Assembly: GCA_030737835.1 (NCBI GenBank) | Contig: JAUJYN010000077.1 | Coordinates: 37,243-101,242, forward strand | DNA from: Acorus gramineus | Taxonomy: Eukaryota > Streptophyta > Magnoliopsida > Acorales > Acoraceae | Direction: 5' to 3' | Length of the DNA stretch: 64,000 nt | Shown: piece after piece, positions 8,155 to 58,826 of the stretch | Position numbering within the stretch: position 1 is the stretch's first letter | How the letters are laid out: each line of letters opens with the position of its first letter | Program-made: the position numbers and the translations under genes | The notes under the pieces: model-generated | The model's database searches: none | Told to the model about the DNA's origin: nothing | Seen by the model: only the letters and a program-made list of their open reading frames with translations

Positions 8155-11100
8155 ATGACTGAGTATACTAAAACTTGTGTAGTTTGGCTCCTTTGGTTTC
8201 TACTTTGTGTGGCAACAATCAATCTATGTCTGTGCAATTCACTCTCCTCCGCAACCTGCTGGGAGATTGAGAGGCAAGCCCTCCTCAAACTCAAAGCGGG
8301 CCTGGTAGACCCTGCAAATCAACTCTCTACATGGACCGATGAGGATTGCTGCCGCTGGAGAGGTGTATCTTGTGATAACCAGACGGGCCATGTTGTCAAG
8401 ATTGACCTTCAAAGAGATTTTGGTAGTTTCTTTAGAGGTAAGATTGGTCCTTCTTTGCTTGATTTGAAACATCTTACTTATTTGGATCTGAGTTGGAACC
8501 ACTTTGAAGGCTCCATTCCTCCTTTCATTGGTTCCTTGTCAAAACTGACATATCTAAATCTCTCAATGGGTTATTTCAATGGTACAATCCCTCCCCAGCT
8601 TGGAAATCTGTCCATCCTCGAGATTCTAGATGTAGGAAATAATTTGCATCTCCGCGCGGACGACCTACAATGGTTGTCGGGCCTTTTATCTTTGCAGCAT
8701 CTTGATTTGACTTATGTTAACCTCACTAAGTCATCTGACTGGTCCCATATGATCTTCAGGCTCCCTTCTTTATCAGTTCTAAAATTGGGCAATTGTGGAC
8801 TTCATAGTTTGCCGAGTTCCATTAAGAATCTGTATGCTAATTCAACACGTCTTTCAGTCCTTGATCTTTCTCGTAATGACTTTGATTCTGAAATTCCAGG
8901 TTGTTTGTTCAATATAAGCAGCCTTACATATCTGGATCTTACTTACAGCAATTTCAATGGTCAAATTCCTAGTGCTTTTGAAAACTTGATCTTTCTTGAG
9001 GTTCTCCTGCTCATGGGAAATAGATTTGATGGTTTGATCTTTCCAAGAGGCATAAAAAATCTCTGCAGATTGCACACATTGGATCTGTCAGACAATCGTT
9101 TTGGGGGAGAGTTTATGGCAATGTTAGGAGGTTCTTCAAGCTGCATTAAAGATAGTCTCCAAATATTATCATTGCAATCCAATAATCTGAAAGGGAACCT
9201 GCCTGACATACTAGAGCAGGCAGGTTCTTTCAGATACCTAAGAACTCTTGATTTGAGATATAACATGATTTCCGGTTCCATCCCAGCATCCATTGGAAGG
9301 TTGTCGTTCTTGTCAAAATTATATTTAAGCGGCAATCAATTGAATGGTACAGTTCCTAATATCATTGGACAACTATCCGATCTAAAAGTTCTAGATCTTG
9401 CTGACAACTCATTGCAAGGGATCATCTCTGAACATCACTTCACCAATCTGATGAAACTACAAGAATTGGATATGTCTTCAAATTCATTGGTTTTGAATGT
9501 TACTCCTGGCTGGGTTCCTCCATTTCATCTTAAAGTAATTGGGTTGGGATCTTGCCATTTGGGTGGTTATTTCCCGAAATGGCTACATACACAGAGCAAA
9601 TTTATTGCACTAAACTTATCCAATACAAGAATTTCAGATACCATACCTGATTGGTTATGGAACTTGTCTTCCCAAGTTGTTCTACTAGATCTCTCACAAA
9701 ATGAGATCAGAGGAATGCTACCCATGTCCTTTTCATCCACTGACATTGACGATATCAACCTGAGTTACAACAAGTTTGAAGGTTCATTACCTCGACTCCC
9801 TTCTCGTCCTTTTTCTCTTGATTTGGCGAGTAATTCATTTACAGGTCCCATTGCTTTTGGCAATAATGAAGTATTTTTAAGCCATCTGATTTTATCAAAC
9901 AATAAAATAAATGGAAGCATCCCCTCATCTATATGCAAACTTGAGGAATTGGCGGTTCTCGATATCTCTAACAATCAGCTATCAGGAGAGCTCCCCACTT
10001 GTCGGAAAAATTTTACTAACTTGATGGTTGTTAATTTAGCAAACAATAACCTCTCTGGAGAGATCCCGACCATGATGTGTCAACATCCTTATCCTTATCT
10101 TGAAGCATTGCGCTTAAGCAATAATAGTTTTTCTGGAGAAATACCTTCTTCTATGAAGGATTGCACGGATTTGGTTATGGTTGATCTCGGGCAAAATAAG
10201 TTACATGGAAATATTCCAACTTGGATGGGAGAGAGCCTATCAAGTTTGGTATTTCTTCGGCTTCGATCAAATTTCTTTGGCGGGACGATTCCTCCTCAAA
10301 TCTGTGAGCTTTCTTCACTTCAGGTCTTGGACCTTGCAGACAATAATCTTACAGGAAATCTACCAGTGTGTATTGGCAATTTTAGCAAAATGATCGTCAA
10401 TCCAAATGCAAGCCAACCGACACTAAATATCCCGGAATTTGGGGCAAGTGCGGGAGACTTTGGTAATTATATATTTCCAAACTACAAATATAGCTTGCCA
10501 TTGGTCAGGGATGGGGAGGAACGCGAATACACCAACAACCTCCCACTGGTGACGAACATCGACTTATCCGACAACTCCCTTGTTGGGGAGATCCCAGAGG
10601 GTCTACTCAATCTTCTCGGATTGCAATGCCTAAACTTGTCTGGAAATTATTTGACGGGGAATATCCCGTTGAAGATTGGTGTTATGCAATCAATGATGAC
10701 ACTTGATCTATCAAGAAACGAGCTCTCTGGGCAGATTCCGCCAAGCCTCTCCAATCTCAGCTTTTTGAATCACTTGAATTTATCATTCAACAATCTATCA
10801 GGGAGAATTCCAACGGGCAGCCAACTCCAGACTCTCAATGATACATCTGTTTATATGGGCAACTCCTATCTATGTGGACCTCCACTCCCCCAAGAATGCC
10901 CGGGCGATGGGCCGTCACAGAACCCATCATTTACTAGTAAAGAAAATGAAGATGAAGGTGGAGACATCCAAGAAATGTTATGGTTTTACCTCGGCATTGT
11001 TTCAGGCTTCGTCTTGGGATGCTGGATGGTCTGGGGAGTTCTGTTTTTCAAAAGAAGCTGGAGGATCGCTTATTTTCTTGTTGTGGACGACCTGTATGAT

Positions 11101-11166
11101 AAAGTTTATGTAACTTCTGTACTCGGCATCCGAAGATTGAAGGAAATGAAAGGAAGGAGAACTTGA
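8155..11166 (+). CDS. LRR receptor-like protein (EIX2/Cf-type), RLP1
   Basis: Single-exon gene for a 1003-residue membrane receptor without kinase. Residues 1-27 form a signal peptide. The LRR N-cap has Cys35, Cys65-Cys66 and Cys73 (DEDCCRW...GVSC). An array of plant-type LRRs (LxxLxLxxNxLxGxIP) fills most of the protein, broken by a loop-out island around 753-795 (variable part, then LVRDGEEREY). After the last LRR come a C-cap (LCGPP..QEC), an acidic stretch (KENEDEGGD), a membrane helix at about 941-965 with GIVSGFVLG (GxxxGxxxG, which in this family supports pairing with SOBIR1) and a 38-residue basic tail. It should sit in the plasma membrane and sense an apoplastic ligand. The start is the ATG directly before the signal peptide; in-frame ATGs at 8092, 8128 and 8146 would add residues, but RLP4 does not preserve the more upstream part. 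A private 3-residue insertion (AGS) lies in one mid-array LRR. Ligand unknown. Confidence 0.93.
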   Translation: MTEYTKTCVVWLLWFLLCVATINLCLCNSLSSATCWEIERQALLKLKAGLVDPANQLSTWTDEDCCRWRGVSCDNQTGHVVKIDLQRDFGSFFRGKIGPSLLDLKHLTYLDLSWNHFEGSIPPFIGSLSKLTYLNLSMGYFNGTIPPQLGNLSILEILDVGNNLHLRADDLQWLSGLLSLQHLDLTYVNLTKSSDWSHMIFRLPSLSVLKLGNCGLHSLPSSIKNLYANSTRLSVLDLSRNDFDSEIPGCLFNISSLTYLDLTYSNFNGQIPSAFENLIFLEVLLLMGNRFDGLIFPRGIKNLCRLHTLDLSDNRFGGEFMAMLGGSSSCIKDSLQILSLQSNNLKGNLPDILEQAGSFRYLRTLDLRYNMISGSIPASIGRLSFLSKLYLSGNQLNGTVPNIIGQLSDLKVLDLADNSLQGIISEHHFTNLMKLQELDMSSNSLVLNVTPGWVPPFHLKVIGLGSCHLGGYFPKWLHTQSKFIALNLSNTRISDTIPDWLWNLSSQVVLLDLSQNEIRGMLPMSFSSTDIDDINLSYNKFEGSLPRLPSRPFSLDLASNSFTGPIAFGNNEVFLSHLILSNNKINGSIPSSICKLEELAVLDISNNQLSGELPTCRKNFTNLMVVNLANNNLSGEIPTMMCQHPYPYLEALRLSNNSFSGEIPSSMKDCTDLVMVDLGQNKLHGNIPTWMGESLSSLVFLRLRSNFFGGTIPPQICELSSLQVLDLADNNLTGNLPVCIGNFSKMIVNPNASQPTLNIPEFGASAGDFGNYIFPNYKYSLPLVRDGEEREYTNNLPLVTNIDLSDNSLVGEIPEGLLNLLGLQCLNLSGNYLTGNIPLKIGVMQSMMTLDLSRNELSGQIPPSLSNLSFLNHLNLSFNNLSGRIPTGSQLQTLNDTSVYMGNSYLCGPPLPQECPGDGPSQNPSFTSKENEDEGGDIQEMLWFYLGIVSGFVLGCWMVWGVLFFKRSWRIAYFLVVDDLYDKVYVTSVLGIRRLKEMKGRRT

Positions 11167-12903: not shown

Positions 12904-13940
12904 GAATAAAGAAATGTTATTTCTATGTTAGATGCAGCATTTATTTGCAGCCTCCTTAGTCACATGTCTTATTTATATATTTGGAGAGAGAAATGTCACT
13001 ACAATTCATTTTTCATGTCTCATTTTTAATATATATGATGTTTTGAGTTTTAAAAAATAGTAGTATTTTTTTTATAATAAAATAAAATATATATTTTAAA
13101 AAATTGCATAATTTTCTTCATAAGGAAATGGAAAAAAAATTATAGTAGATTTATACTTTCATTAATGTGAGAGTATGATGTTAACAAACTGTGTGTACCA
13201 ATGCTTATTTGCTCATTCGGAAAGCATGTAATATTTATAGTAAATGTTAAAACTTTGTTTACAATCTAGCATGTAATCCACGCACATTTTTAATTTTTTA
13301 AAAATATCATACATCATCTAATAAGGTTTATAATTTTATAAATAATGAAGTGTATACTCTGATGAATTGTGTAAATTCATTGATAGAAATGCTAAAAAGA
13401 GCCTAATGAGAGGTATGTGGGGACTGCTGGTCGGGTACGACGCTCAATTTTTTTTCTATGAGTGGCCTAAATAATTCAAGTATGTATTACATTTTAATAA
13501 ATATACATGACTGATTACATGAAATGTATTTATTTAAAAAATAAAAAAATGAGGGGGTTGCATGTGAGGTTACACGTTGGACTGTCCCTAACATCATGTT
13601 AAATTTAACTTTGGTAAACACACAGTACTGTATAAAGATCAAGTTAATGGGCTACCACCACAACATTGGTAAACACAGGCTGTATAAAGATTAAGTTAAT
13701 TTAACTTTTAATTAAATTGAAGCCCAGAACAATGATAAATACAATAAAAACAAACTTGAAATCGATACAACTAAATTAAGTATTTGCATAAAATCATGTT
13801 ACCATTGAAATGTAATATTTTCAATGCGATGACACACCTAACAACACGACCATTGTAGGTGGAAGCCGGGTCTCAGTGGTCTGTCAATGGTCACCTTTTT
13901 GTTGCCAAAATTGCAAGAGGCCTAACAAGTTATGGACCAA
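12904..13940. other. 3' intergenic spacer, no gene
   Basis: AT-rich spacer repeated at about 27510-29362 (with a 1-kb MITE inside) and 60419-61432. No credible gene or RNA seen. Confidence 0.5.
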
Positions 13941-14556
13941 GAGCATCTCCAGAGGCCTCCTTACATCATTTTTTTCATCATACAGTGAGTCAAATCTCTT
14001 AAAACTCAATTCCAATGGTTTCCTTACACCCCTCCTTCACTACATTTTTCCTTAACACACTTCTCATGGATGGGGAGCCACATTCATTCCCTACATCAAA
14101 AAAAGAATATATTGCATCATTTCCCTTCTTTCATTTCTTTTTTTTTTATATGGGCATAATGAGTATTTCTTTACATAATTTTTTTGTTCATTATTAATAA
14201 TTAATTTTTATTCATTATAAATAATTTTTATTTATTTTTCTTGTTTTTTGAAATTTTTATTTTACTTTTAATTAATTTTTACTCATTATTAATAATTTTT
14301 ATTTAAATAATCTATATTCCAAGTCAATATTTGATGAATTTTAGAATATGTTTTTATTCATTTGATATTTGGGCATCTTGTAATTTATAGATATGATTTG
14401 AGATATTTGATTATTTTGAATGAGGATAAGATAAAAAATAAAGAGGTTTTTAGAATAACAAAAAAAAAAATTAACAATGACTTCCTACGTGTCTTAGTGA
14501 GACAATCTCTCCCCCACAATATATGGAAAAGAGAAGACAGGTTTTTGAAAATGCTC
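13941..14556. mobile_element. MITE with GAGCATCTCC ends
   Basis: Left end GAGCATCTCCAG, right end GAAAATGCTC followed by TAA, with an AT-rich non-coding interior. The ends resemble the element at 45817-46413, which has a TTA duplication, and suggest a PIF/Harbinger-type MITE. Here the left flank is CAA and not TAA. Present at the same place in units 2 (29363-29974) and 4 (61433-62045), so it predates those duplications. Confidence 0.5.
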
Positions 14557-14599
14557 TAAGAAACTCCACGAATCACTGACAAAAAGAATTTATGATGGG

Positions 14600-15086
14600 A
14601 ATAAATACCGGATCCTTAGAGGCTGTAACTTGAATTACCAAACTGGATGTACAAAATGCCTATGATGGACACCAGCAAATATTTCTGATTTATAAACTAA
14701 TAACCCCAAGTATCCATTATCAGTTCAAGCAAAACAAAGCCACAAATCCCCTTCTCTTACATTATCAAGCAACAAGACACAGTTTATCAAGTGTCACCAC
14801 TACATATAATTGAGAAACAAAAGACCATCAACCAAAAAAAAGAAAAAAGAAGCACCATCATGGCATCATCTCTGGTGCTTCATCCTACAAAATGGTGTAA
14901 TACAACAATTCCCAATGTTTTTAGTCATATATGAAATCTGAATACATGCAGCATCACACAAGAAGGGGACGTTGGCATACGTTCCTGTGAGGGAACATCG
15001 GATGCATTGAAGCACTGTGAAGAGGAATGTCTTTGGAAGCTTTGGGAACCATGACAGATCCAGGTCCTGGCCTACGGGCATTGTTC
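14600..15086 (-). pseudogene. Antisense terminal-exon and 3'UTR fragment of an unidentified gene
   Basis: On the minus strand a good plant splice acceptor precedes 15086: a CTAAC branch-like word, a T-rich run and TTTGCCTAG. The frame opened there runs to a TGA at 14954-14956 and encodes 44 residues containing RRPGPGSVMVPKASKDIP and HPMFPHRN, a family I do not recognise. Beyond the stop comes U-rich sequence typical of a plant 3'UTR. No other exon or start lies nearby, so this looks like the last exon of another host gene trapped in the duplicated unit. Near-identical copies lie at 30000-30515 and 62060-62586, and a partly deleted one at 44340-44700. A short non-coding transcript is an alternative. 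Confidence 0.4.
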
Positions 15087-15423
15087 CTAGGCAAAACAGG
15101 AATCATGTGGGTTAGGCTGCCATGGAGTCGATGCAAACAAGGGTTAACACACAAAATATATCACCGTCTCCAAGCTCTTAATTAAATTAAATGCTACCAT
15201 AAGTACAAAATATACACCAATCACGCGCAAATTACTTCCAATATCCCATGTGAGTTGTAAAAAAAAAATTGAACAAGGCATAATGATGCTGCAGATTCTA
15301 ATTTGTATATAACTTCATCATGAATAGTCTTGTACATCATTTTTAATCCAAAGGTTCATTTATATATGTTTGATTCCCTCTTTTGAGTTACAACTCAACC
15401 AAATTTATACTTTCCCTGACCCT
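15087..15423. other. Intron-like spacer upstream of the antisense fragment
   Basis: AT-rich sequence that, on the minus strand, would be the end of an intron leading to the acceptor at 15087. No second exon or donor is convincing. Repeated in units 2 and 4. Confidence 0.35.
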
Positions 15424-16190
15424 ACTACGAAGAGCTTGAGTCCAGGTCCCTCCTTTTCATCACATTAATAAAACATCTCCCATCAAACTGATTGGATCAG
15501 CGGATCTAGGTCCTCTTCATACTCTCTTATGAAGCATGACTGATCTAGGTCCTCGCATAAATCAAAAAAGGGTTAAAAGAGATTTACGTCCCTACAAATA
15601 TGAATAATCTCGTATAAGTCTCTGTTAAAGTTGGGGCAAGTCCTTGTAAACTCAAAAAACCCCATTATCATTTCTGAGTTAAATTTTCATCCAAAATTGA
15701 TGGAATATTCTCATAATATTTCATCATCATGTAATTGTGTAGACATTACAATCCCTATAAACAATAATAAAAATAAATTAATCCCTACAAAAGATCAATT
15801 TGTCCATATAGAACTTTTATATTTCTTCATTCTCAGAAAGGTATTGTTTGGAGAAGTAAAAAAATTGGGAACAATTTAATCATTTCATGGTATAGGGTTA
15901 GGGTTAATTAGAATTAAACTCCGCTAACAACGTGAATGTATATGGATTTTTGTGAGTTTTCAAATATGGGATTACCCATATGTTTACAAGGATATAAATG
16001 TTTTTAATTAACCCATCAAAAAAACCAAACATATATCTTCTGAAATAATATGCTTAATTAAAAATTTTGTTTTAACTTTTTTATATGCTTTATACATAAT
16101 TATATATTTCAAAGGAGTTCACATCTATATAAAAAAAAAATAGGATGGAGTCCGTTTACCTGGAGGATTGACATTGACCGTGACAGACAT
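15424..16190. repeat. Partial, diverged A-block in unit 2
   Basis: Begins with the GAGCTTGAGTCCAGGTCC segment and contains a diverged copy of the MULE-type MITE. It ends abruptly near 16190 in GTGACAGAC, where it joins the middle of another A-block. The junction marks an unequal recombination or deletion breakpoint. Confidence 0.6.
15570..16014. mobile_element. MULE-type MITE, diverged copy
   Basis: About 445 bp, starting GGGTTAAAAGAGATTTACG and ending in AACCC, flanked by a perfect 9-bp ATCAAAAAA repeat. The flanks correspond to those at 1047 and 16468, so it is the same ancient insertion. The more diverged sequence marks an older split of the A-blocks. Confidence 0.65.
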
Positions 16191-16195: not shown

Positions 16196-17506
16196 TTCAT
16201 CGTCAGCGTTTACACTGACGATGGTGAACAGAAATATTAAGGAGACCCAAAGGAATCAAGACCCTAATATTAGATTATGCAAAAACCCAATACTGAAACA
16301 AAGTTTAGAGAAAAAGAGAAGGCCTTGTATTATTTTCATCACATTAATAAAACCTCTCCCATCAAACTGCTTGGACCAGCGGATCAGTATTAGAATTCAC
16401 AACAAAATCCTCGATCCGACTTTCTTCTGAAGCATGATTGATTTAGGTCCTCGCATAAATAAAAAAAAGGTTAAAGACATTTATGTCCCTCCAAGCATGG
16501 ATAATTCTGTATAAGTATCTATTAAAGTTGTGGCAGATGTACAAGTCCATGTAAACTCACAAAAACAAAAACCCCATTATCATCTCTAGGTTTAATTTTT
16601 TCATCCAAAATTGATGGAATATTCCGAGAATACTTCATCACCATGTAATTGTGTAATTGTATAAACATTACAGTCCTTATAAACAATCATAAAAATAAAT
16701 TAGTCCATGCAAAATATCAAATTGCCCATGTAAAACTTTTATATATTTCTACATTCTCAAAGATACATGATTTGGAGAGGTAAAAAAATTGAGAACGATT
16801 TAGTTATTTCATAGTATAGGATTAGGGTTAACTAGGATGGTTGGGTTAGAATTAATGTCTGCTGACAACATGAATGTATATAGATTTTTGTGAGTTTTCA
16901 AATACTTGTACATTTGCTCAAACTTTGACAAAGACTTATATAGGATTACCCATGTTTGCAAGGATATAAATGTTTTTAACCCATAAAAAAAACCAAACAT
17001 ATATCTTCTGCAATAATGTGCTTAATTAAAAAAAAATTAACTTTTTTTAAAAAAAATATGTTTTATACAAAATTATATTTTTCAAAGGAGTTTACAACTA
17101 TAGCAAAAAAAAAAAGTAGGATGGAGTCCGTTACCTGGAGGATTGACATTGACCCTGACAGGCTAGATCAAGTGGCTTTAGTGACAACAAACAGTCCCCC
17201 AGTGAGACATATGGATCGGAATCAAAGGAAATTACATCGAACCATCAAAAGGAATGTTAGCTAAATCCAAAAGTCACGGTGGACTAAGAATTTAAAGTCT
17301 TTAGGAAACATTAGCTCAATCCAAATTAAAAGTCATTGTGGAATAATTAAAAAATTCTCTGAGTCTTTTGAAACAGTAGCACATACATCTCTTTCAATGG
17401 CCAAGCAAAAAGTTGGAGTCGTCTGATGACTTTGATCCGTCCAAAACCATTAGACGCGTTCAATGTGAATTGTGGAGTGCCTTACGGGGCATTCCAAGGA
17501 TGTGAA
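16196..17506. repeat. A-block in unit 2, left-truncated
   Basis: Matches 4207-5699 from about its first quarter onward and closes with the same CATTCCAAG word. Contains the MULE-type MITE at 16468-16982. No gene. Confidence 0.7.
16468..16982. mobile_element. MULE-type MITE
   Basis: About 515 bp, collinear with 4671-5181 and in the same A-rich target. Inverted ends, non-coding. Confidence 0.7.
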
Positions 17507-23918: not shown

Positions 23919-26900
23919 ATGAGTGAGTATACTAAAACTTGTGTAGTTTGGCTCCTTTGGTTTCTACTTTGTGTGGCAACAATCAATCTATGTCTGTGCA
24001 ATTCACTTTCCTCCGCAACCTGCTGGGAGATTGAGAGGCAAGTCCTCCTCAAACTCAAAGCGGGCCTGGTAGACCCTGCAAATCGACTCTCTACATGGAC
24101 CGATGAGGATTGCTGCCGCTGGAGCGGTGTATCCTGTGATAACCAGACGGGCCATGTTGTCAAGATTGACCTTCAAAACCCTTATTATGATGGCTCACTA
24201 TATAATGATTGGCCAAATGGGTCCTTGAGAGGTAAGATTGGTCCTTCTTTGCTTGATTTGAAACATCTTACTTATTTGGATCTGAGTTCGACGGATTTTG
24301 AAGGCTCCATTCCTCCTTTCATTGGTTCCTTGTCAAAACTGACATATCTAAATCTCTCAATGAGTTCTTTCAATGGTACAATCCCTCCCCAACTTGGAAA
24401 TCTGTCCATCCTCGAGATTCTAGATGTAGGAAAGAATTGGTATCTCCGCGCGGACGACCTACAATGGTTGTCGGGCCTTTTATCTTTGCAGCATCTTGAT
24501 TTGAACCATGTTAACCTCACTAAGTCATCTGACTGGTTCCATATGATCTTCAGGCTCCCTTCTTTATCAGTTCTAAAATTGGGCAATTGTGGACTTCATA
24601 GTTTGCCGAGTTCCATTAAGAATCTGTATGCTAATTCAACACGTCTTTCAGTCCTTGATCTTTCTTATAATTACTTTGATTCTGAAATTCCAGGTTGGTT
24701 GTTCAATATTAGCAGCCTTACACATCTCCATCTTAGTGGCAACCATTTCTATGGTCCAATTCCCAATGTTTTCGGAAATTTTATCAACCTCGAGGTCCTT
24801 GATCTTTCTTCAAATACAATTAATTCCACAATACCCCATTGGATCTTCAATATAAGCAGCCTTACGTATCTGGATCTGAGTTTCAACAATTTCAATGGTC
24901 AAATTCCTAGTGCTTTTGAAAAAAGCTACATTAAAGTTAGTCTCCAGATATTATCGTTAAGATCCAATAATCTGAAAGGGAACCTGCCTGACATACTAGA
25001 GCAGTTCAGATACCTAAGAACTCTTGATTTGAGTAATAACATGATTTCCGGTTCCATCCCAGCATCCATTGGAAGGTTCTCGTTCTTGTCAAAATTATAT
25101 TTAAGCGGCAATCAATTGAATGGTACAGTTCCTAATATCATTGGACAACTCTCCGATCTAAAAGTTCTAGATCTTGCTCACAACTCATTGCAAGGGATCA
25201 TCTCTGAACATCACTTCACCAATCTGATGAAACTAGAAGAACTGGATATGTCTTCAAATTCATTGGTTTTGAATGTTACTCCTGGCTGGGTTCCTCCATT
25301 TCATCTTAAAGTAATTGGGTTGGGATCTTGCCATTTGGGTGGTTATTTCCCGAAATGGCTACATACACAGAGCAAATTTATTGCACTAAACTTATCCAAT
25401 ACAAGAATTTCAGATACCATACCTGATTGGTTATGGAACTTGTCTTCCCAAGTTGTTCTACTAGATCTCTCACAAAATGAGATCAGAGGAATGCTACCCA
25501 TGTCCTTTTCATCCACTAACATTGAAGTTATCAACCTGAGTTACAACAAGTTTGAAGGTTCATTACCTCGACTCCCTTCTCGTCCTTTTTCTCTTGATTT
25601 GACGAGTAATTCATTTACAGGTCCCATTGCTTTTGGCAATAATAAAGTATCATTAGGCCTTCTGTTTTTATCAAACAATAAAATAAACGGAAGCATCCCC
25701 TCATCTATATGCAAACTTGAGGAATTGGCGGTTCTCGATATCTCTAACAATCAGCTATCAGGAGAGCTCCCCACTTGTTGGAAAAATTTAACTAGCTTGA
25801 TGGCTGTTAATTTGGCAAACAATAACCTCTCTGGAGAGATCCCGACCATGATGTGTCATAATCATCTTCTTGGTCTTCATGCATTACGCTTAAGCAATAA
25901 CAGTTTTTCTGGAGAAATACCATGTTCTATGAAGAATTGCACCAGTTTGGCTATGGTTGATCTCGGGCAAAATAAGTTACATGGAAATATTCCAACTTGG
26001 ATGGGAGAGAGCCTATCAAGTTTGGTATTTCTTCGGCTTCGATCAAATTTCTTTGGCGGGACGATTCCTCCTCAAATCTGTGAGCTTTCTTCACTTCAGG
26101 TCTTGGACCTTGCAGACAATAATCTTATAGGACATCTACCAGAGTGTATTGGCAATTTCAGCAAAATGATCGTCAATCCAAATGCAAGCCAACAGGCACT
26201 ATATATGCCGGTACATATTGAAGATTGGGGAGACTTTGGTATTCATATATTTCCAAACTACAAATATAGCTTGCCATTGGTCAGGGATGGGGAGGAACGT
26301 GAATACACCAACATCCTCCCACTGGTGACGAACATCGACTTATCCAACAACTCTCTTGTTGGAGAGATCCCAGTGGGTGTACTCAGTCTTCTTGGATTGC
26401 AATGCCTAAACTTGTCTAGAAATCATTTGACGGGGAATATCCCGTTGAAGATTGGTGTTATGCAATCAATGATGACACTTGATCTATCAAGAAACGAGCT
26501 CTCTGGGCAGATTCCGCCAAGCCTCTCCAATCTCAGCTTTTTGAATCACTTGAATTTATCATTCAACAACTTGTCAGGGAGAATTCCAACGGGCAGCCAA
26601 CTCCAGACTCTCAATGATACATCTGTTTATATGGGCAACTCCTATCTATGTGGACCTCCACTGCCCCAAGAATGCCCGGGCGATGGGCCGTCACAGAGCC
26701 CATCATTTACTAGTAAAGAAAATGAAGATGAAGGTGGAGACATCCAAGAAATGTTATGGTTTTACCTCGGCATTATTTCAGGCTTCGTCTTGGGATGCTG
26801 GATGGTCTGGGGAGTTCTGTTTTTCAAAAGAAGCTGGAGGATCGCTTATTTTCTTGTTGTGGACGACCTGTATGATAAAGTTTATGTAACTTCTGTACTC

Positions 26901-26942
26901 GGCATCCGAAGATGGAAGGAAATGAAAGGAAGGAGAACTTGA
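23919..26942 (+). CDS. LRR receptor-like protein (EIX2/Cf-type), RLP2
   Basis: Single exon, 1007 residues from the ATG before the signal peptide; other in-frame ATGs lie upstream. Same domain order as RLP1: signal peptide, LRR N-cap (DEDCCRWSGVSC), LRR array, island ending LVRDGEEREY, C-cap (GPPLPQEC), acidic stretch, membrane helix with GIISGFVLG, and basic tail ending RRWKEMKGRRT. It differs from RLP1 by whole-repeat changes. It has gained about 48 residues (two LRRs, the part containing NVFGNFINLEVLDLSSN and STIPHWIFNISS) and lost about 51 (the GNRFDGLIFPRG and LHTLDLSDNRFGGEF repeats). The LRR1 patch reads NPYYDGSLYNDWPN and the island patch MPVHIEDWGDFGIHI, both unlike RLP1. Its upstream region carries the LINE-in-CACTA insertion, ending ~500 bp before the start. 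Ligand unknown. Confidence 0.93.
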   Translation: MSEYTKTCVVWLLWFLLCVATINLCLCNSLSSATCWEIERQVLLKLKAGLVDPANRLSTWTDEDCCRWSGVSCDNQTGHVVKIDLQNPYYDGSLYNDWPNGSLRGKIGPSLLDLKHLTYLDLSSTDFEGSIPPFIGSLSKLTYLNLSMSSFNGTIPPQLGNLSILEILDVGKNWYLRADDLQWLSGLLSLQHLDLNHVNLTKSSDWFHMIFRLPSLSVLKLGNCGLHSLPSSIKNLYANSTRLSVLDLSYNYFDSEIPGWLFNISSLTHLHLSGNHFYGPIPNVFGNFINLEVLDLSSNTINSTIPHWIFNISSLTYLDLSFNNFNGQIPSAFEKSYIKVSLQILSLRSNNLKGNLPDILEQFRYLRTLDLSNNMISGSIPASIGRFSFLSKLYLSGNQLNGTVPNIIGQLSDLKVLDLAHNSLQGIISEHHFTNLMKLEELDMSSNSLVLNVTPGWVPPFHLKVIGLGSCHLGGYFPKWLHTQSKFIALNLSNTRISDTIPDWLWNLSSQVVLLDLSQNEIRGMLPMSFSSTNIEVINLSYNKFEGSLPRLPSRPFSLDLTSNSFTGPIAFGNNKVSLGLLFLSNNKINGSIPSSICKLEELAVLDISNNQLSGELPTCWKNLTSLMAVNLANNNLSGEIPTMMCHNHLLGLHALRLSNNSFSGEIPCSMKNCTSLAMVDLGQNKLHGNIPTWMGESLSSLVFLRLRSNFFGGTIPPQICELSSLQVLDLADNNLIGHLPECIGNFSKMIVNPNASQQALYMPVHIEDWGDFGIHIFPNYKYSLPLVRDGEEREYTNILPLVTNIDLSNNSLVGEIPVGVLSLLGLQCLNLSRNHLTGNIPLKIGVMQSMMTLDLSRNELSGQIPPSLSNLSFLNHLNLSFNNLSGRIPTGSQLQTLNDTSVYMGNSYLCGPPLPQECPGDGPSQSPSFTSKENEDEGGDIQEMLWFYLGIISGFVLGCWMVWGVLFFKRSWRIAYFLVVDDLYDKVYVTSVLGIRRWKEMKGRRT

Positions 26943-27617: not shown

Positions 27618-27649
<32 letters not shown>

Positions 27650-40846: not shown

Positions 40847-43549
40847 ATGAGTGAGTATACTAAAACTTGTGTAGTTTGGCTCCTTTGGTTTCTACTTTGT
40901 GTGGCAACAATCAATCTGTGTCTGTGCAATTCACTCTCCTCCGCAACCTGCTGGGAGATTGAGAGGCAAGCCCTCCTCAAACTCAAAGCGGGCCTGGTAG
41001 ACCCTGCAAATCGACTCTCTACATGGACCGATGAGGATTGCTGCCGCTGGAGCGGTGTATCCTGTGATAACCAGACGGGCCATGTTGTCAAGATTGACCT
41101 TCGAAACCCTTATTCAAATGATCGTGATGGCTCACTATATAATGATTGGCTAAATGAGTCCTTGAGAGGTAAGATTGGTCCTTCTTTGCTTGATTTGAAA
41201 CATCTTACTCATTTGGATCTGAGTTCGAACTACTTTGAAGGCTCCATTCCTCCTTTCATTGGTTCCTTGTCAAAACTGACATATCTAAATCTCTCAATGA
41301 GTGGTTTCAATGGTAAAATCCCTCCCCAGCTTGGAAATCTGTCCATCCTCGAGATTCTAGATGTAGGATACAATAATTGGTTTCTCCGCGCGGACGACCT
41401 ACAATGGTTGTCGGGTCTTTTATCTTTGCAGCATCTTGATTTGACTTTTGTTAACCTCACTAAGTCATCTGACTGGTTCCATATGATCTTCAGGCTCCCT
41501 TCTTTATCAGTTTTAAAATTGAGGTATTGTGGACTTCAAAGTTTGCCGAGTTCTCTTAAGAATCAGCATGCTAATTTTACCAGTCTTTCAGTCCTTGATC
41601 TTTCTGGTAATGACTTTCATTCCACAATACCCCATTGGATGTTCAATATAAGCAGCCTTACATATCTGGATCTTAGTGTCAACAATTTCAATGGTCAAAT
41701 TCCTAGTGCTTTTGAAAACTTGATCTCTCTTGAGGTTCTCCTGCTCTTCGGAAATAGATTTGATGGTTTGATCTTTCCAAGAGGAATAAAAAATCTCTCT
41801 TGAGGTTCTCTTGCTCACAACTCATTGCAAGGGATCATCTCTGAACATCACTTCACCAATCTGATGAAACTAGAAGAACTGGATATGTCTTCAAATTCAT
41901 TGGTTTTGAATGTTACTCCTGGCTGGGTTCCTCCATTTCATCTTAAAGTAATTGGGTTGGGATCTTGCCATTTGGGTGGTTATTTCCCGAAATGGCTACA
42001 TACACAGAGCAAATTTATTGCACTAAACTTATCCAATACAAGAATTTCAGATACCATACCTGATTGGTTATGGAACTTGTCTTCCCAAGTTGTTCTACTA
42101 GATCTCTCACAAAATGAGATCAGAGGAATGCTACCCATGTCCTTTTCATCCACTGACATTGAAGATATCAACCTGAGTTACAACAAGTTTGAAGGTTCAT
42201 TACCTCGACTCCCTTCCCGTCCTTGGTCTCTTGATTTGGCGAGTAATTCATTTACAGGTCCCATTGCTTTTGGCAATGATAAAGCATCATTAGACCATCT
42301 GATTTTATCAAACAATAAAATAAACGGAAGCATCCCCTCATCTATATGCAAACTTGAGGAATTGGCGGTTCTCGATATCTCTAACACTCAGCTATCAGGA
42401 AAGCTCCCTACTTGTTGGAAAAATTTTACTAAATTGATGGTTGTTAATTTAGCAAACAATAACCTCTCTGGAGAGATCCCGACCATGATGTGTCGACATC
42501 CTTATCCTTATCCTGAAGCATTGCGCTTAAGCAATAATAGTTTTTCTGGAGAAATACCTTCTTCTATGAAGGATTGCACGGATTTGGTTATGGTTGATCT
42601 CGGGCAAAATAAGTTACATGGAAATATTCCAACTTGGATGGGAGAGAGCCTATCAAGTTTGGTATTTCTTCGGCTTCGATCAAATTTCTTTGGCGGGACG
42701 ATTCCTCCTCAAATCTGTGAGCTTTCTTCACTTCAGGTCTTGGACCTTGCAGACAATAATCTTATAGGACATCTACCAGAGTGTATTGGCAATTTCAGCA
42801 AAATGATCGTCAATCCAAATGCAAGCCAACCGGCACTATATATCCTGGAATATGTTGTAGATGGGGGAGACCTTGGTTATTATGGAGTTCCAAACTACAA
42901 ATATAGCCTGCCATTGGTTAGGGATGGGGAGGAACGCGAATACACCAACAACCTCCCACTGGTGACGAACATCGACTCATCCGACAACTCCCTTGTTGGG
43001 GAGATCCCAGAGGGTCTACTCAATCTTCTCGGATTGCAATGCCTAAACTTGTCTGGAAATTATTTGACGGGGAATATCCCGTTGAAGATTGGTGTTATGC
43101 AATCAATGTTGACACTTGATCTATCAAGAAACGAGCTCTCTGGGCAGATTCCGCCAAGCCTCTCCAATCTCAGCTTTTTGAATCACTTGAATTTATCATT
43201 CAACAACTTGTCAGGGAGAATTCCAACGGGCAGCCAACTCCAGACTCTCAATGATACATCCGTTTATATGGGCAACTCCTATGTGTGTGGACCTCCAATC
43301 TCTCAAGAATGCCCAGGTGACGGGACATCACAGAGCCCATCATTTACTAGTAAAGTAAATGAACATGAAGGTGGGGACATCCAAGAAATGTTATGGTTTT
43401 ACCTCGGCATTGTTTCGGGGTTCATCTTGGGATGCTGGATGGTCTGGGGAGTTCTGTTTTTCAAAAGAAGCTGGAGGATCACTTATTTTCTTCTTGTGGA
43501 CGACCTGTATGATAAAGTTTATGTAACGCGCTCAGCATCCGAAGATTGA
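40847..43549 (+). pseudogene. LRR receptor-like protein RLP3, internal deletion and stop
   Basis: The start, signal peptide, N-cap (DEDCCRWSGVSC) and first LRRs are as in RLP1 and RLP4. At 41800-41820 about 0.3 kb present in RLP1 (roughly 9065-9400, several LRRs) is missing. The joint carries a short copy of TCTCTTGAGGTTCTC, which also occurs ~75 bp upstream. The joint keeps the reading frame but creates TGA at 41804-41806. After it the frame continues unbroken through the island (ILEYVVDGGDLGYYG), C-cap (GPPISQEC) and membrane helix (GIVSGFILG) to 43549. The last residues (VYVTRSASED) differ because a small deletion shifts the tail. The N-terminal product would be a ~319-residue secreted LRR fragment. 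Recent loss is likely, since the rest is well preserved. Confidence 0.85.
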
Positions 43550-45152: not shown

Positions 45153-45331
45153 TCCTCGGCTTTGTTTCAGGGTTCGTCTTGGGATGTTTGATGGTCTGGG
45201 GAGTTCGATTTTTCAAAAGAAGCCAGAGGATCGTTTATTTTCTTCTTGTGGACGACCTGTATGATAAAGTTTATGTAACTTCCGCGCTCAGCATCCGAAG
45301 ATTGAAAGCAATGAAAGCAAGGAGAATTTGA
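45153..45331 (+). pseudogene. RLP C-terminal remnant (fifth receptor copy)
   Basis: This encodes only the membrane helix and tail of an RLP: GFVSGFVLGCLMVWGVRFFK, then the juxtamembrane R-rich part, LLVDDLYDKVYVTS and ALSIRRLKAMKARRI with TGA at 45329-45331. The ~2.9 kb before it is absent, and an upstream-type block is fused directly to it, so a deletion removed the rest. Its tail and 3' flank (AATCAAAGCTGATGATATG) match the RLP3 3' end rather than those of RLP1, 2 and 4. An AATAAA survives at 45423-45428. Confidence 0.85.
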
Positions 45332-45813
45332 ATCAAAGCTGATGATATGACCTTTTATTTTGTTGGGTTATTGTAATAGTAAATATTATGTACCAAAGTA
45401 CCTATTGTGTGCATTGCTCAAAAATAAAATGTATTTTATAGTAATATACAGTTTGGTATGTAAAATGGAGAGTCCTCTGGTTTGATATGTAAGACCTCGG
45501 GAAAGGAGGTCCCACGTTCCACTATTTATGGTCACGCAAAGTTTTTTATTTCTATGTTACCTGTAGCATTTATCTGTAGTCTCATTTTTAATACGTATGA
45601 TGTTTTGAGTTTTAAAAAATTGTAAGTATTTTTTTATAATAAAATAAAATACATATTTCATTGTATAATTTTATTCATGAAAAAATGGAAAAAAAAGTTA
45701 TAATGAGATGTATAACTTGTTAATGTGAATGTATGATACTAATAAAAATAGAATTAGGCCAAAAAAAAAAAAGAATTGTGTATAACAATACTCATTCGGA
45801 AAGCATGTAATGT
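45332..45813. other. RLP-type 3' flank, LINE-free
   Basis: Collinear with the 3' flanks of the other RLPs. At 45531-45560 the site that holds the LINE at 11672-12903 is empty (GGTCACGCAAAG runs straight into TTTTTTATTTCTATGTTAC). No gene. Confidence 0.55.
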
Positions 45814-48441: not shown

Positions 48442-48566
48442 TGTTAAATGTATATATATGCTAGGGTTAAGGGTAGATTAGTCTTTTCCTAGTTTCCCTT
48501 TTGTACTATAAGTATTGGCTACAAGCCCTAATAATACAACTGATTCATTCTTTTCATATTCTAACA
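48442..48566 (+). repeat. Copia left LTR
   Basis: 125 bp, TG...CA type, with TACTATAAGTATTGG as a possible TATA region. Confidence 0.88.
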
Positions 48567-48599
48567 TGGTATCAGAGCTTGAATCAAATTTTTTTCTTT

Positions 48600-48839
48600 G
48601 ATCGTCGACGGCCCGTCGCCCCGCGCCGCCGTTGCGCCACCGGGCCGCCGCTGCACCGCCTCGCGCCGCCGCTGCGCCGCCGTCGTGCCGCCGCTGCACC
48701 GCCCCGCGCCACCGCCGCGCCGCCGTCATGCCGCCGCTGCACCGCCCCGCTCCACCGCCGCGCCGCCGTCGTGCCGCCGCCGCGTCGCCCCGCGCCGCCA
48801 CCGTGTCGCCGCTGCACCGCCCAGCACCGCCACTGCGTT

Positions 48840-48875
<36 letters not shown>

Positions 48876-49400: not shown

Positions 49401-49557
49401 GTTTACCGCCTCGTCATCGCCTTTTTCGGTATTTTCTTTGTCCGGCCGCTACGGGCTCATTCGGACTCCAAATATAGCCATATTGGTACTCATTTTGATC
49501 AGTTTTTCGTGATCTACGCATCTGTGACTGTTTTGGATCTATCAGATACTGTTTATT

Positions 49558-52500: not shown

Positions 52501-53136
52501 TATCTCACTGTCACTCGTCCTGACATTGCCTATGCTGTGCATATTGTCAGTCAGTTTGTCGCTGCCCCTCGTACTGTTCATTATGCAGCAGTTCTTCGGA
52601 TTATACGCTATCTACGTGGCACTATATCTCGTGCTCTGCTGTTACCGTCTTCTTCTACTCTTGAACTTCGCGCTTATACTGATGCTGATTGGGCAGGAGA
52701 TGTCACAGATCGAAAATCCACAACTGGTATATGTGTCTTTCTTGGGGACTCTCTTATATCTTGGAAGGCCAAGAAACAAGACATTGTTTCTCGTTCGAGT
52801 GCTGAGGCCGAATATCGTGCTATGGCATCTGCTACTGCTGAGGTTGTTTGGCTTCGACGCCTCATTTCTGACATGGGCGTCATTCTATCTGCGTCTACTC
52901 CCCTATTTTGTGACAACAAGAGCGCCATTCAGATTGCTAGCAATCCAGTATTTCATGAACGTACGAAGCACATCGAGATCGATTGTCACTTCGTCCGTCA
53001 TCATTTTATTGCGGGCACTATATCACTCCCATATATTTCTTCTTCTCTTCAGTTATCAGACTTTTTCACAAAGTCTCATACACTTCAGCGGCATGATTTC
53101 TTGTTGAGCAAACTCTCGGTGTATGATCCACCATGA
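49558..53136 (+). CDS. Copia pol polyprotein region
   Basis: An open frame of 1192 codons with the Copia domain order. A CCHC zinc knuckle (CRYCHSFGHVTLDC) lies at about residues 11-24. The aspartic protease motif LDSGASHHMT is near 120-130. A GAG-pre-integrase segment (FDLWHRRLGHLS) comes next, then the integrase core from about 317 (HSDIWGP, FIDDYSRFTW). The reverse transcriptase follows (KARLVARGFTQ, then LLYVDDMIITGDD), and last a type I RNase H (YTDADWAGD, SRSSAEAEYRAMA, CDNKSAI). Integrase before RT identifies Ty1/Copia. This is an element protein, not a host gene, and an upstream gag domain is not evident. Confidence 0.88.
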   Translation: MIYCCASTMDCRYCHSFGHVTLDCRKLARKRARDAAFTLSIQSSTQSSICQDQICTSIAPRVASAQSQFTTAHLIAHLKGLEDQYQQLYVMLRSLTGIDLSGSVQSASAPVPGIPITSWVLDSGASHHMTSDASILANCTPLRSPSLIRTADGSPMSVSSSGILSDHSHRFNVPNVLHVPKLSMSLFSVSQLADLGYTITFDSSSCSVQDRLTGRRIGTGRRQGGLYYMDQLHVPLPSAASVQLDTNSHSPFDLWHRRLGHLSQPRLRYLVSTGALGSFSRTDLQPCVGCKLGKTVALPFPSSSHISDSPFDLVHSDIWGPSPIFSKGGNRYYVIFIDDYSRFTWIYLLSSRSDLLRIYTSFATMVETQFSRRIKVLRSDCGGEYCSKAFSEYLTSQGTLPQFSTPYAHQQNGVAERKHRHILEMTRSLLLSASVPVEFWGEAVLTSVYLINRTPSSITGGISPSERLHNQPPDYSRLRVFGCTCFVLLPPTERTKLSPRSAMCVFLGYSIQHKGYKCYDPIARRLRISCHVTFWEHHPYYALRSPPAPLPPSTVDDLIFLDFSTPESSPSSIPPASIPSSVPSTTLPSPISPSSDDSCEPSPPVVAPAPDVVQPVVDHAPAVDPASAVDHTPAVDPTPVVDPAPVAPRRNPPRARRPPQRLSLVASDSFSPSFQCFLSAVSTHWEPQSYREAVGIPEWEGAMAEELSALQRTHTWKIVPLPPGKTPISCKWVYKIKTNSDGSIERHKARLVARGFTQQHGIDYDETFAPVAKMTTVRTLISVASVRQWPIYQLDVKNAFLHGDLSEEVYMTPPPGLPHSSGHVCHLHRALYGLKQAPRAWFARFTDAICAAGFVLSSSDPALFVHTSGPHRTILLLYVDDMIITGDDSSHIQSVKQHLQRQFEMKDLGKLRYFLGLEVASAPRGYLLSQRKYTADLIDRACLTDDRISPTPIELHAKLRPDDGEPLSDVTRYRQLVGSLVYLTVTRPDIAYAVHIVSQFVAAPRTVHYAAVLRIIRYLRGTISRALLLPSSSTLELRAYTDADWAGDVTDRKSTTGICVFLGDSLISWKAKKQDIVSRSSAEAEYRAMASATAEVVWLRRLISDMGVILSASTPLFCDNKSAIQIASNPVFHERTKHIEIDCHFVRHHFIAGTISLPYISSSLQLSDFFTKSHTLQRHDFLLSKLSVYDPP

Positions 53137-53149
53137 GTTTGAGGGGGGG

Positions 53150-53274
53150 TGTTAAATGTATATATATGCTAGGGTTAAGGGTAGATTAGTCTTTTCCTTG
53201 TTTCCCTTTTGTACTATAAGTATTGGCTACAAACCCTAATAATAGAATTGATTCATTCTTTTCATATTCTAACA
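53150..53274 (+). repeat. Copia right LTR
   Basis: 125 bp, four differences from the left LTR. Confidence 0.88.
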
Positions 53275-55691: not shown

Positions 55692-55799
55692 TGGGATCTT
55701 CCCAAAGAAAACACAACCCCGTGCCACATTTGATTTTTATGCACCACCAACCATTATATATACTCACGGTATATGGGGTTGTGGATTGACATGGTGATC

Positions 55800-58700
55800 A
55801 TGAGTGAGTATACTAAAACTTGTGTAGTTTGGCTCCTTTGGTTTCTACTTTGTGTGGGAACAATCAATCTATGTCTGTGCAATTCACTCTCCTCCGCAAC
55901 CTGCTGGGAGATTGAGAGGCAAGCCCTCCTCAAACTCAAAGCGGGCCTGGTAGACCCTGCAAATCGACTCTCTACATGGACCGATGAGGATTGCTGCCGC
56001 TGGAGCGGTGTATCCTGTGATAACCAGACGGGCCATGTTGTCAAGATTGACCTTCGAAACCCTTATTCAAATGATTGGCTAAATGATTGGCTAAATGGGT
56101 CCTTGAGAGGTAAGATTGGTCCTTCTTTGCTTGATTTGAAACATCTTACTTATTTGGATCTGAGTTCGAACTACTTTGAAGGCTCCATTCCTCCTTTCAT
56201 TGGTTCCTTGTCAAAACTGACATATCTAAATCTCTCAATGAGTAATTTCAATGGTACAATCCCTCCCCAGCTTGGAAATCTGTCTATCCTCGAGATTCTA
56301 GATGTAGGAAATAATTGGGATCTCCGCGCGGACGACCTACAATGGTTGTCAGGCCTTTTATCTTTGCAGCATCTTGATTTGACCCGTGTTAACCTCACTA
56401 AATCATCTGACTGGTTCCATATGATCTTCAGGCTCCCTTCTTTATCAGTTTTAACATTGAGCGATTGTGGACTTCAAAGTTTGCCGAGTTCTCTTAAGAA
56501 TCAGCATGCTAATTTTACCAGTCTTTCAGTCCTTGATCTTTCTGCTAATGACTTTCATTCTGCAATTCCTGGTTGTTTGTTCAATATAAGCAGCCTTACA
56601 TATCTGGATCTTAGTTACAACAATTTCAATGGTCAAATTCCTAGTGCTTTTGAAAACTTGATCTCTCTTGAGGTCCTCCTGCTCATCGGAAATAGATTTG
56701 ATGGTTTGATCTTTCCAAGAGGCATAAAAAATCTCTGCAGATTGCACACATTGGATCTGTCAGACAATCGTTTTGGGGGAGAGTTTATGGCAATGTTAGG
56801 AGGTTCCTCAAGCTACATTAAAGATAGTCTCCAGATATTATCGTTAAGATCCAATAATCTGAAAGGGAACCTGCCTGACATACTAGAGCAGTTCAGATAC
56901 CTAAGAACTCTTGATTTGAGTAATAACATGATTTCCGGTTCCATCCCAGCATCCATTGGAAGGTTGTCATTCTTGTCAAAATTATATTTAAGCGGCAATC
57001 AATTGAATGGTACAGTTCCTAATATCACTGGACAACTCTCCGATCTAAAAGTTCTAGATCTTGCTGACAACTCATTGCAAGGGATCATCTCTGAACATCA
57101 CTTCACCAATCTGATGAAACTAGAAGAACTGGATATGTCTTCAAATTCATTGGTTTTGAATGTTACTCCTGGCTGGGTTCCTCCATTTCATCTTAAAGTA
57201 ATTGGGTTGGGATCTTGCCATTTGGGTGGTTATTTCCCGAAATGGCTACATACACAGAGCAATTTTATTGCACTAAACTTATCCAATACAAGAATTTCAG
57301 ATACCATACCTGATTGGTTATGGAACTTGTCTTCCCAAGTTGTTCTACTAGATCTCTCACAAAATGAGATCAGAGGAATGCTACCCATGTCCTTTTCATC
57401 CACTAACATTGAAGATATCAACCTGAGTTACAACAAGTTTGAAGGTTCATTACCTCGACTCCCTTCTCGTCCTTTTTCTCTTGATTTGGCGAGTAATTCA
57501 TTTACAGGTCCCATTGCTTTTGGCAATGATAATGTATCATTAGAGCATCTGATTTTATCAAACAATAAAATAAACGGAAGCATCCCCTCATCTATATGCA
57601 AACTTGAGGAATTGGCGGTTCTCGATATCTCTAACAATCAGCTATCAGGAGAGCTCCCCACTTGTTGGGAAAATTTAACGAGCTTTATGGTTGTTAATTT
57701 AGCAAACAATAACCTCTCTGGAGAGATCCCGACCATGTGTGATTATTCTTATCCTTATCTTAAAGCATTATGCTTAAGCAATAATAGTTTTTCTGGAGAA
57801 ATACCTTCTTCTATGAAGGATTGCACGAATTTGGTTATGGTTGATCTCGGGCAAAATAAGTTACATGGAAATATTCCAACTTGGATGGGAGAGAGCCTAT
57901 CAAGTTTGGTATTTCTTCGGCTTCGATCAAATTTCTTTGGCGGGACGATTCCTCGTCAAATCTGTGAGCTTTCTTCACTTCAGGTCTTGGACCTTGCAGA
58001 CAATAATCTTACAGGACATCTACCAGAGTGTATTGGCAATTTCAGCAAAATGGTCGTCAATCCAAATGCAAGCCAACAGGCACTATATTTCATTGAAATT
58101 GGGGTACTTGCAGGAGACGTTGGTCCTTATATGTTTCCAAACTACAAATATAGCTTGCCATTGGTCAGGGATGGGGAGGAACGTGAATACACCAACAACC
58201 TCCCACTAGTAACTTACATGGACTTATCCGACAACTCTCTTGTTGGAGAGATCCCAGTGGGTGTACTCAGTCTTCTTGGATTGCAAGGCCTGAACTTGTC
58301 TAGAAATCATTTGACGGGGAATATCCCATCGAAGATTGGTGTTTTGCAATCAATGATGACACTTGATCTATCAAGAAACGAGCTCTCTGGGCAGATTCCG
58401 CCAAGCCTCTCCAATCTCAGCTTTTTGAATCACTTGAATTTATCATTCAACAACTTGTCAGGGAGAATTCCAACGGGCAGCCAACTCCAGACTCTCAATG
58501 ATACATCTGTTTATATGGGCAACTCCTATCTGTGTGGACCTCCAATCTCTCAAGAATGCCCAGGTGACGGGACATCACAGAGCCCATCATTTACTAGTAA
58601 AGAAAATGAAGATGAAGGTGGGGACATCCAAGAAATGTTATGGCTTTACCTCTGCATTGTTTCGGGGTTCATCTTGGGATGTTGGATGGTCTGGGGAGTT

Positions 58701-58826
58701 CTGTTTTTCAAAAGAAGCTGGAGGATCGCTTATTTTCTTGTTGTGGACGACCTGTATGATAAAGTTTATGTAACTTCTGTACTCGGCATCCGAAGATGGA
58801 AGGAAATGAAAGGAAGGAGAACTTGA
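55800..58826 (+). CDS. LRR receptor-like protein (EIX2/Cf-type), RLP4
   Basis: Single exon, 1008 residues from the ATG before the signal peptide (in-frame ATGs at 55773 and 55791 would add up to 9 residues). Domain order as in RLP1, with the GNRFDGLIFPRG and DLSDNRFGGEF repeats kept. The LRR1 patch contains an internal duplication (NDWLNDWLN). The island patch FIEIGVLAGDVGPYM is unique. The membrane helix is CIVSGFILG: the first Gly of the GxxxGxxxG motif seen in RLP1 and RLP2 is Cys here, leaving one GxxxG, which could weaken helix pairing. The protein is a mosaic: its late LRRs (VGVLSLLGLQ, LNLSRNHLTG) match RLP2, its C-cap (GPPISQECPGDGTSQ) matches RLP3, and its tail (RRWKEMKGRRT) matches RLP2. 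Ligand unknown. Confidence 0.93.
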   Translation: MSEYTKTCVVWLLWFLLCVGTINLCLCNSLSSATCWEIERQALLKLKAGLVDPANRLSTWTDEDCCRWSGVSCDNQTGHVVKIDLRNPYSNDWLNDWLNGSLRGKIGPSLLDLKHLTYLDLSSNYFEGSIPPFIGSLSKLTYLNLSMSNFNGTIPPQLGNLSILEILDVGNNWDLRADDLQWLSGLLSLQHLDLTRVNLTKSSDWFHMIFRLPSLSVLTLSDCGLQSLPSSLKNQHANFTSLSVLDLSANDFHSAIPGCLFNISSLTYLDLSYNNFNGQIPSAFENLISLEVLLLIGNRFDGLIFPRGIKNLCRLHTLDLSDNRFGGEFMAMLGGSSSYIKDSLQILSLRSNNLKGNLPDILEQFRYLRTLDLSNNMISGSIPASIGRLSFLSKLYLSGNQLNGTVPNITGQLSDLKVLDLADNSLQGIISEHHFTNLMKLEELDMSSNSLVLNVTPGWVPPFHLKVIGLGSCHLGGYFPKWLHTQSNFIALNLSNTRISDTIPDWLWNLSSQVVLLDLSQNEIRGMLPMSFSSTNIEDINLSYNKFEGSLPRLPSRPFSLDLASNSFTGPIAFGNDNVSLEHLILSNNKINGSIPSSICKLEELAVLDISNNQLSGELPTCWENLTSFMVVNLANNNLSGEIPTMCDYSYPYLKALCLSNNSFSGEIPSSMKDCTNLVMVDLGQNKLHGNIPTWMGESLSSLVFLRLRSNFFGGTIPRQICELSSLQVLDLADNNLTGHLPECIGNFSKMVVNPNASQQALYFIEIGVLAGDVGPYMFPNYKYSLPLVRDGEEREYTNNLPLVTYMDLSDNSLVGEIPVGVLSLLGLQGLNLSRNHLTGNIPSKIGVLQSMMTLDLSRNELSGQIPPSLSNLSFLNHLNLSFNNLSGRIPTGSQLQTLNDTSVYMGNSYLCGPPISQECPGDGTSQSPSFTSKENEDEGGDIQEMLWLYLCIVSGFILGCWMVWGVLFFKRSWRIAYFLVVDDLYDKVYVTSVLGIRRWKEMKGRRT

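What the first reader, a model, noticed from the sequence alone, without database searches (positions are those of the whole stretch)
8155..58826. RLP paralogues are mosaics: shared blocks switch partners along the gene
Informative patches group the copies differently. Late LRRs: RLP1 and RLP3 share EGLLNLLGLQ/LSGNYL, while RLP2 and RLP4 share VGVLSLLGLQ/LSRNHL. In the C-cap ~100 residues later: RLP1 and RLP2 share GPPLPQECPGDGPS, while RLP3 and RLP4 share GPPISQECPGDGTS. In the tail: RLP1, 2 and 4 share KEMKGRRT, while RLP3 and the remnant at 45153 have the other type. No single tree fits, which points to gene conversion or unequal crossing-over within the array.
Basis: partly seen in the sequence, partly recalled or inferred. 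Interest (0 to 1): 0.7.

Follow-up and report, generated by a model that had tools for sequence, protein, structure and literature searches.

The report
Patchwork plant immune-receptor gene array
Four neighbouring copies of a plant surface immune-receptor gene carry short shared patches that pair the copies up differently along the gene, the mark of sequence exchange between duplicated resistance-type genes; it is real, but a textbook kind of event.

Summary
Four tandem LRR receptor-like protein (RLP) copies, nearest solved relative RXEG1, give 69 two-against-two sites: 31 group 12|34, 28 group 13|24, 10 group 14|23. They lie in blocks: 19 partition switches against a shuffle mean of 42, 0 of 100,000 shuffles as low. 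Silent sites alone show it (3 of 20,000). AU tests support conflicting trees in the 5' flank, an LRR tract, the late LRRs and the C-cap (borders chosen after looking). No single tree fits.

Amendments. (1) The patches are short (about 110-140 bp), and their two types usually differ more at silent sites (dS 0.10-0.36) than other segments (0-0.11), so old lineages or alleles probably supplied them. (2) The tail is no conflict by itself; it marks RLP3's sharp switch to the type of the decayed remnant at 45154. (3) RLP2 carries LRRs out of register, 92.5% identical to RLP3; RLP3 is a pseudogene.

Best explanation: ectopic gene conversion plus unequal crossing-over in a resistance-type array, as reported for tomato Cf-4/9 (title seen, content recalled). 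New member of a known kind.

The parts
8155..11166 (+). RLP1, open LRR-RLP gene
   Evidence: ORF; 89.6% identical protein to RLP4 by tblastn
23919..26942 (+). RLP2, open LRR-RLP gene with displaced LRRs
   Evidence: ORF
40847..43549 (+). RLP3, pseudogene: 317 alignment columns missing at about 41797 and 4-nt deletion in the tail
55773..58826 (+). RLP4, open LRR-RLP gene
   Evidence: ORF; Pfam LRRNT_2 and LRR; RXEG1 match
45154..45494 (+). Decayed RLP remnant (transmembrane/tail and 3' flank), older lineage
   Evidence: 91.3% to RLP3 tail, 84% to RLP1, 2 and 4
8779..8891 (+). Tract A1 in RLP1 (12|34); counterparts RLP2 24573-24685, RLP3 41513-41625, RLP4 56451-56563
   Evidence: 13 consecutive 12|34 sites; AU p 0.0008 for both other trees; coordinates
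10419..10523 (+). Island-domain region in RLP1, variable in all copies; counterparts RLP2 26195-26299, RLP3 42832-42936, RLP4 58079-58183
   Evidence: 14.3-21.0% pairwise difference
10524..10648 (+). Tract B in RLP1, late LRRs (13|24); counterparts RLP2 26300-26424, RLP3 42937-43061, RLP4 58184-58308
   Evidence: 9 consecutive 13|24 sites; AU p 0.0017 for both other trees
10872..11011 (+). Tract A2 in RLP1, C-cap (12|34); counterparts RLP2 26648-26787, RLP3 43285-43424, RLP4 58532-58671
   Evidence: 13 consecutive 12|34 sites; AU p 0.0005 for both other trees
24817..24922 (+). Out-of-register LRR block in RLP2
   Evidence: 92.5% to RLP3 41613 onward; 72.6% to RLP2's own 24673 onward, a 144-bp (two-LRR) shift
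43482..43493 (+). Switch point in RLP3 to the remnant's sequence type
   Evidence: 16 sites 3+remnant|124 from 43493 on, none in the aligned stretch before it; shared 21-column insert
12917..16188 (.). Duplicated downstream block of the RLP1 unit, repeated at 27382-31622 (in pieces) and 60410-63699
   Evidence: self-BLAST, about 95-96% for the long pieces
4408..7742 (.). Duplicated upstream block of the RLP1 unit, repeated at 16205-19522 and 30881-34003
   Evidence: self-BLAST, 91-96%

Best explanation
A tandem array of cell-surface LRR-RLP genes (RXEG1-like) grew by unequal crossing-over in units whose genes start about 15-17 kb apart. The copies then received short tracts, about 100-150 bp, by ectopic gene conversion from each other and from older sister lineages, one of which survives as the remnant at 45154 and as the 3' end of RLP3. 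Out-of-register pairing of LRRs gave RLP2 its displaced repeats; RLP3 lost about 0.3 kb and became a pseudogene. Shown: the array, the block-wise tree conflict, the RLP3 switch, the out-of-register block. Inferred: conversion as the molecular event, donors, direction, order, and any effect on recognition.
For: Sites in blocks, 0 of 100,000 shuffles; conflicting AU tests; breakpoint search, 53 of 69 sites concordant with three breaks against a maximum of 47 in 300 shuffles; GENECONV-like fragments; silent sites alone 3 of 20,000; RLP3-remnant junction; RLP2-RLP3 out-of-register block; more silent divergence between types in tracts A1 and A2 than in other segments.
Against: Donors carrying both tract and matching surroundings are not in the window. 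Merging same-type sites within 30 bp leaves 31 events in random order (p 0.48), so nothing beyond the tracts is shown. In the stricter CDS run test the C-cap tract does not reach significance. dS counts are small and tract B's lowest value (0.10) equals that of columns 3111-3332 (up to 0.11). Some non-coding downstream windows also differ by 8-12%. No reads were available.
Confidence: 0.8

Rival explanations
1. Old alleles: the patch types were allelic haplotypes already recombined at one ancestral position, and unequal crossing-over between different haplotypes spread ready-made mosaics into the array.
For: Types are old, and copies sharing a tract still differ by 0.8-7.2% inside it, so the sharing is not recent.
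Against: RLP3's junction with the neighbouring remnant and the out-of-register LRRs need exchange between non-allelic places.
Confidence: 0.15
2. Assembly chimera between near-identical repeats.
For: Copies are 91-94% alike over the aligned region; no reads could be checked.
Against: Shared tracts are not identical (1-9 differences in 113-140 bp), several breaks fall inside each gene, and the copies have distinct flanks and insertions.
Confidence: 0.03
3. Convergent or parallel substitution under diversifying selection on a single tree.
For: Exposed LRR positions vary more than other LRR positions (30/146 against 65/531, p 0.015), and the island region more still (17/44). In tract A1, 9 of 13 sites are non-synonymous.
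Against: Silent and non-coding sites show the same blocks (29 sites, 6 switches, 3 of 20,000 shuffles); 9 of 13 C-cap sites are synonymous.
Confidence: 0.02

Closest known systems
Tomato Cf-4/Cf-9 (Hcr9) cluster, Parniske et al. 1997
   Same: Tandem LRR-RLP genes with patchwork sequence exchange between copies (title seen in reference lists; content recalled).
   Different: No ligand, phenotype or haplotype comparison here; the plant is not named.
Tomato Cf-2/Cf-5 homologues (two-LRR super-motif duplications)
   Same: LRRs move in steps of two repeats (passage in PMC4030839; here a 144-bp shift).
   Different: In RLP2 a displaced pair comes with loss of other LRR sequence, so the aligned length is almost unchanged (1003, 1007 and 1017 aa in RLP1, 2, 4).
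Nicotiana benthamiana RXEG1 (PDB 7drb)
   Same: LRR ectodomain with an island region near the C-terminal LRRs; phmmer E 2.4e-181.
   Different: The island-motif lysine (K807 in RXEG1, passage) aligns with aspartate; all four copies have it.

Membership tests
LRR receptor-like proteins (RXEG1-like) | LRR N-terminal cap and many extracellular-type LRRs | tested here: met
   LRRNT_2 and LRR families above cut-off in RLP4 and in RLP3's first piece; 27 LRR motifs found by a simple pattern in RLP4
LRR receptor-like proteins (RXEG1-like) | No kinase domain; short tail after the membrane segment | tested here: met
   No kinase family among Pfam hits of RLP4; hydrophobic stretch and short tail seen in the translations; no membrane predictor was run
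LRR receptor-like proteins (RXEG1-like) | Island region before the last LRRs | tested here: met
   Non-LRR stretch at RLP4 residues about 760-803, aligned to RXEG1
LRR receptor-like proteins (RXEG1-like) | Kx5Y or Yx8KG island motif (frequent, not universal: over 75% of LRR-RLP island domains, PMC10834447) | tested here: not met
   The four copies read Yx8DG and Dx5Y at that place; passages. Not a strictly defining feature
Mosaic resistance-gene cluster (Cf-4/9 kind) | Tandem paralogues in duplicated units | tested here: met
   Self-BLAST
Mosaic resistance-gene cluster (Cf-4/9 kind) | Informative sites that change partners in blocks | tested here: met
Mosaic resistance-gene cluster (Cf-4/9 kind) | Donor sequences identified | tested here: inconclusive
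   Only RLP3's tail (remnant) and RLP2's block (RLP3) have candidate partners in the window
Mosaic resistance-gene cluster (Cf-4/9 kind) | Exchange changes pathogen recognition | not testable with these tools
   No ligand or phenotype known

The most novel reading that the evidence does not exclude
The array works as a small archive: decayed copies (RLP3, the remnant and its older-lineage flanks) preserve old sequence types that are repeatedly copied as cassettes of about 100 bp into the intact receptors, in the LRRs, next to the island domain and in the C-cap.
Probability: 0.1. Interest if true: 0.55.

Novelty: new member of a known kind. Interest (0 to 1): 0.27.

Why it matters
It adds a clear, quantified case of patchwork evolution in a cell-surface receptor array, with patch types that look older than the duplicated units and LRRs displaced by two repeats. 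Copies in such arrays should not be placed on one gene tree, nor orthology called from one segment.

Tried and rejected
Chance clustering: rejected. Convergent selection as the main cause: rejected by silent sites. Assembly chimera: unlikely, not excluded. The tail pattern as independent proof of conflict: rejected by logic, since {1,2,4}|{3,remnant} and {1,3,remnant}|{2,4} fit one tree; kept as a breakpoint. The 15% divergence in the first 750 columns of the U3 block is not counted as mosaic, since another repeat type appears to be aligned there. The test on merged events gave no clustering (p 0.48). GARD, RDP and the original GENECONV were not run; my scripts imitate GENECONV and a breakpoint search. 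The species was not identified, and no other plant genome was searched.

Full report
What is there. The window holds four same-strand copies of one LRR receptor-like protein gene: RLP1 8155-11166, RLP2 23919-26942, RLP3 40847-43549 and RLP4 55773-58826. A fifth survives only as a transmembrane/tail remnant at 45154-45494. The best solved relative of RLP4 is RXEG1 (7drb, E 2.4e-181); Pfam gives LRRNT_2 and LRR families and no kinase. The genes sit in duplicated units whose long flanking blocks are 91-96% alike in self-BLAST. RLP1, 2 and 4 are open. RLP3 is broken by 317 missing alignment columns at about 41797 and by a 4-nt deletion in its tail.

In a four-copy DNA alignment (4254 columns; columns with a gap in any copy dropped) 69 sites split the copies two against two: 31 for 12|34, 28 for 13|24, 10 for 14|23. 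They come in runs: 8 of 10 are 13|24 in the 5' flank; thirteen in a row are 12|34 at columns 1240-1352; nine in a row are 13|24 in the late LRRs (2985-3109); thirteen in a row are 12|34 in the C-cap (3333-3472). There are 19 switches against a shuffle mean of 42.2, 0 of 100,000 shuffles as low. Three other alignment settings give 0 of 20,000 each; the 29 silent or non-coding sites alone give 6 switches against 15.4 (3 of 20,000), the other 40 sites 13 against 25.6 (1 of 20,000).

Trees. AU tests were run on 16 segments, 12 separate and 4 composite, whose borders I chose. Of the 12, four reject both other trees clearly: the 5' flank (13|24), tract A1 (12|34), tract B (13|24) and tract A2 (12|34). 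The tail does so only marginally (13|24, p 0.048), columns 2475-2879 reject 12|34 only, and six decide nothing. Of the composites, the whole CDS and the whole alignment reject 14|23 only, with 12|34 best. A breakpoint search without preset borders puts the best three breaks between columns 1174 and 1240, 1352 and 1365, and 3109 and 3333, with 53 of 69 sites concordant against a maximum of 47 in 300 shuffles; a single break is not convincing (16 of 300 reach it). Hold-out accuracy on every second site is 0.706 against a null mean of 0.40; with three breaks the best of 500 null runs also reached 0.706, with five breaks 0.647. A GENECONV-like run test of the CDS, without RLP2's displaced region, finds four fragments with global P below 0.05: R1-R3 at 3031-3145 and 2563-2756, R3-R4 at 663-883, and R1-R2 at 1240-1309; the C-cap tract is not among them. 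In 4000 clonal simulations (8 settings of 500) one reached the observed 38 minority sites and none the minority run of 9; these simulations had about half the informative sites observed, so they are a rough control.

What kind of exchange. The tracts are short. Some stretches between them are nearly uniform (columns 3110-3332: 1.4-2.7% different; 1842-2325: 0.8-2.1%), others less so (600-1170: 2.5-5.3%; 2475-2880: 1.7-6.9%), while the two types inside the tracts differ by 8.8-17.7%. At silent sites the types differ by dS 0.15-0.23 (A1), 0.10-0.27 (B) and 0.33-0.36 (A2). Comparison segments give 0.003-0.05 (1842-2470), 0-0.08 (2475-2820), 0.03-0.07 (574-1170) and 0.04-0.11 (3111-3332); non-coding unit flanks differ by 2.7-5.8% on average, though single downstream windows range from 0 to 12.4%. 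The excess is clear for A2, fair for A1 and weaker for B; the counts are small (for A2, 8 silent differences per pair). The simplest reading is that the tract types are older than the duplicated units and came from older lineages or alleles. When same-type neighbours within 30 bp are merged, 31 events remain in random order (p 0.48): this fits many short conversions, and shows no longer-range structure.

RLP3 and the remnant. From window 43493 on, RLP3 shares 16 sites and a 21-column insert with the remnant against RLP1, 2 and 4. In the aligned stretch before it there is no such site, and three sites at 43417-43424 group RLP3 with RLP4. This is a sharp junction between two lineages. The tail pattern alone is not a conflict between trees.

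Out-of-register LRRs. RLP2 24817-24922 fits RLP3 41613 onward at 92.5%, RLP4 at 84.9%, RLP1 at 82.1%, and RLP2's own 24673 onward at 72.6%, a shift of 144 bp or two LRRs. Two-LRR super-motif duplications are described for Cf-2/Cf-5 homologues (PMC4030839, passages seen).

Where variation falls. The island region is variable in 17 of 44 residues against 95 of 677 in the rest of the LRR part; exposed strand positions in 30 of 146 against 65 of 531 (RLP2's displaced region left out of the LRR counts, LRR positions set by a simple pattern). In RXEG1 the two loopouts carry most of the ligand contact (PMC12686451, passages). That the variation here serves recognition is inference.

Known or new. Sequence exchange between tandem RLPs is the subject of Parniske et al. 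1997 on Cf-4/9; I saw its title in reference lists and recall the content. Paper searches were made; of the papers listed I read passages of four. This is a new member of a known kind.

Limits. No reads, no species name, no other plant genome; the own-genome search did not complete. Donors, direction and dates remain open.

Noticed in passing
window 10524-10580 (RLP1) and counterparts in RLP2, RLP3, RLP4: The lysine shared by the island motifs Yx8KG and Kx5Y, needed for BAK1 binding in RXEG1 (PMC12686451, PMC10834447, passages), is aspartate in all four copies (NYKYSLPLVRDGEEREY). Coordinates approximate.
   Followed up: partly
window 41780-41850: RLP3's deletion junction carries TCTCTTGAGGTTCTC, also present about 70 bp upstream (close to one LRR length): looks like slippage or templated filler between LRRs.
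   Followed up: no
window 48434-53274: Copia-type element with a 1192-aa open frame (RVT_2, rve) and a 133-nt direct repeat at its ends, 95% alike, beside a GC-rich repeat tract at 48613-48981.
   Followed up: partly
window 20769-22971 and 36707-38370: Reverse-transcriptase/RNase H-like fragments (RVT_1, zf-RVT, RVT_3) upstream of RLP2, and a BED/DUF659 transposase-like frame in two pieces upstream of RLP3.
   Followed up: no
window 27910-28940 and 59387-60410: A roughly 1-kb element with long inverted repeats (about 436 bp arms, 87-92%) downstream of RLP2 and of RLP4, absent at that place from RLP1's unit in the self-BLAST.
   Followed up: no
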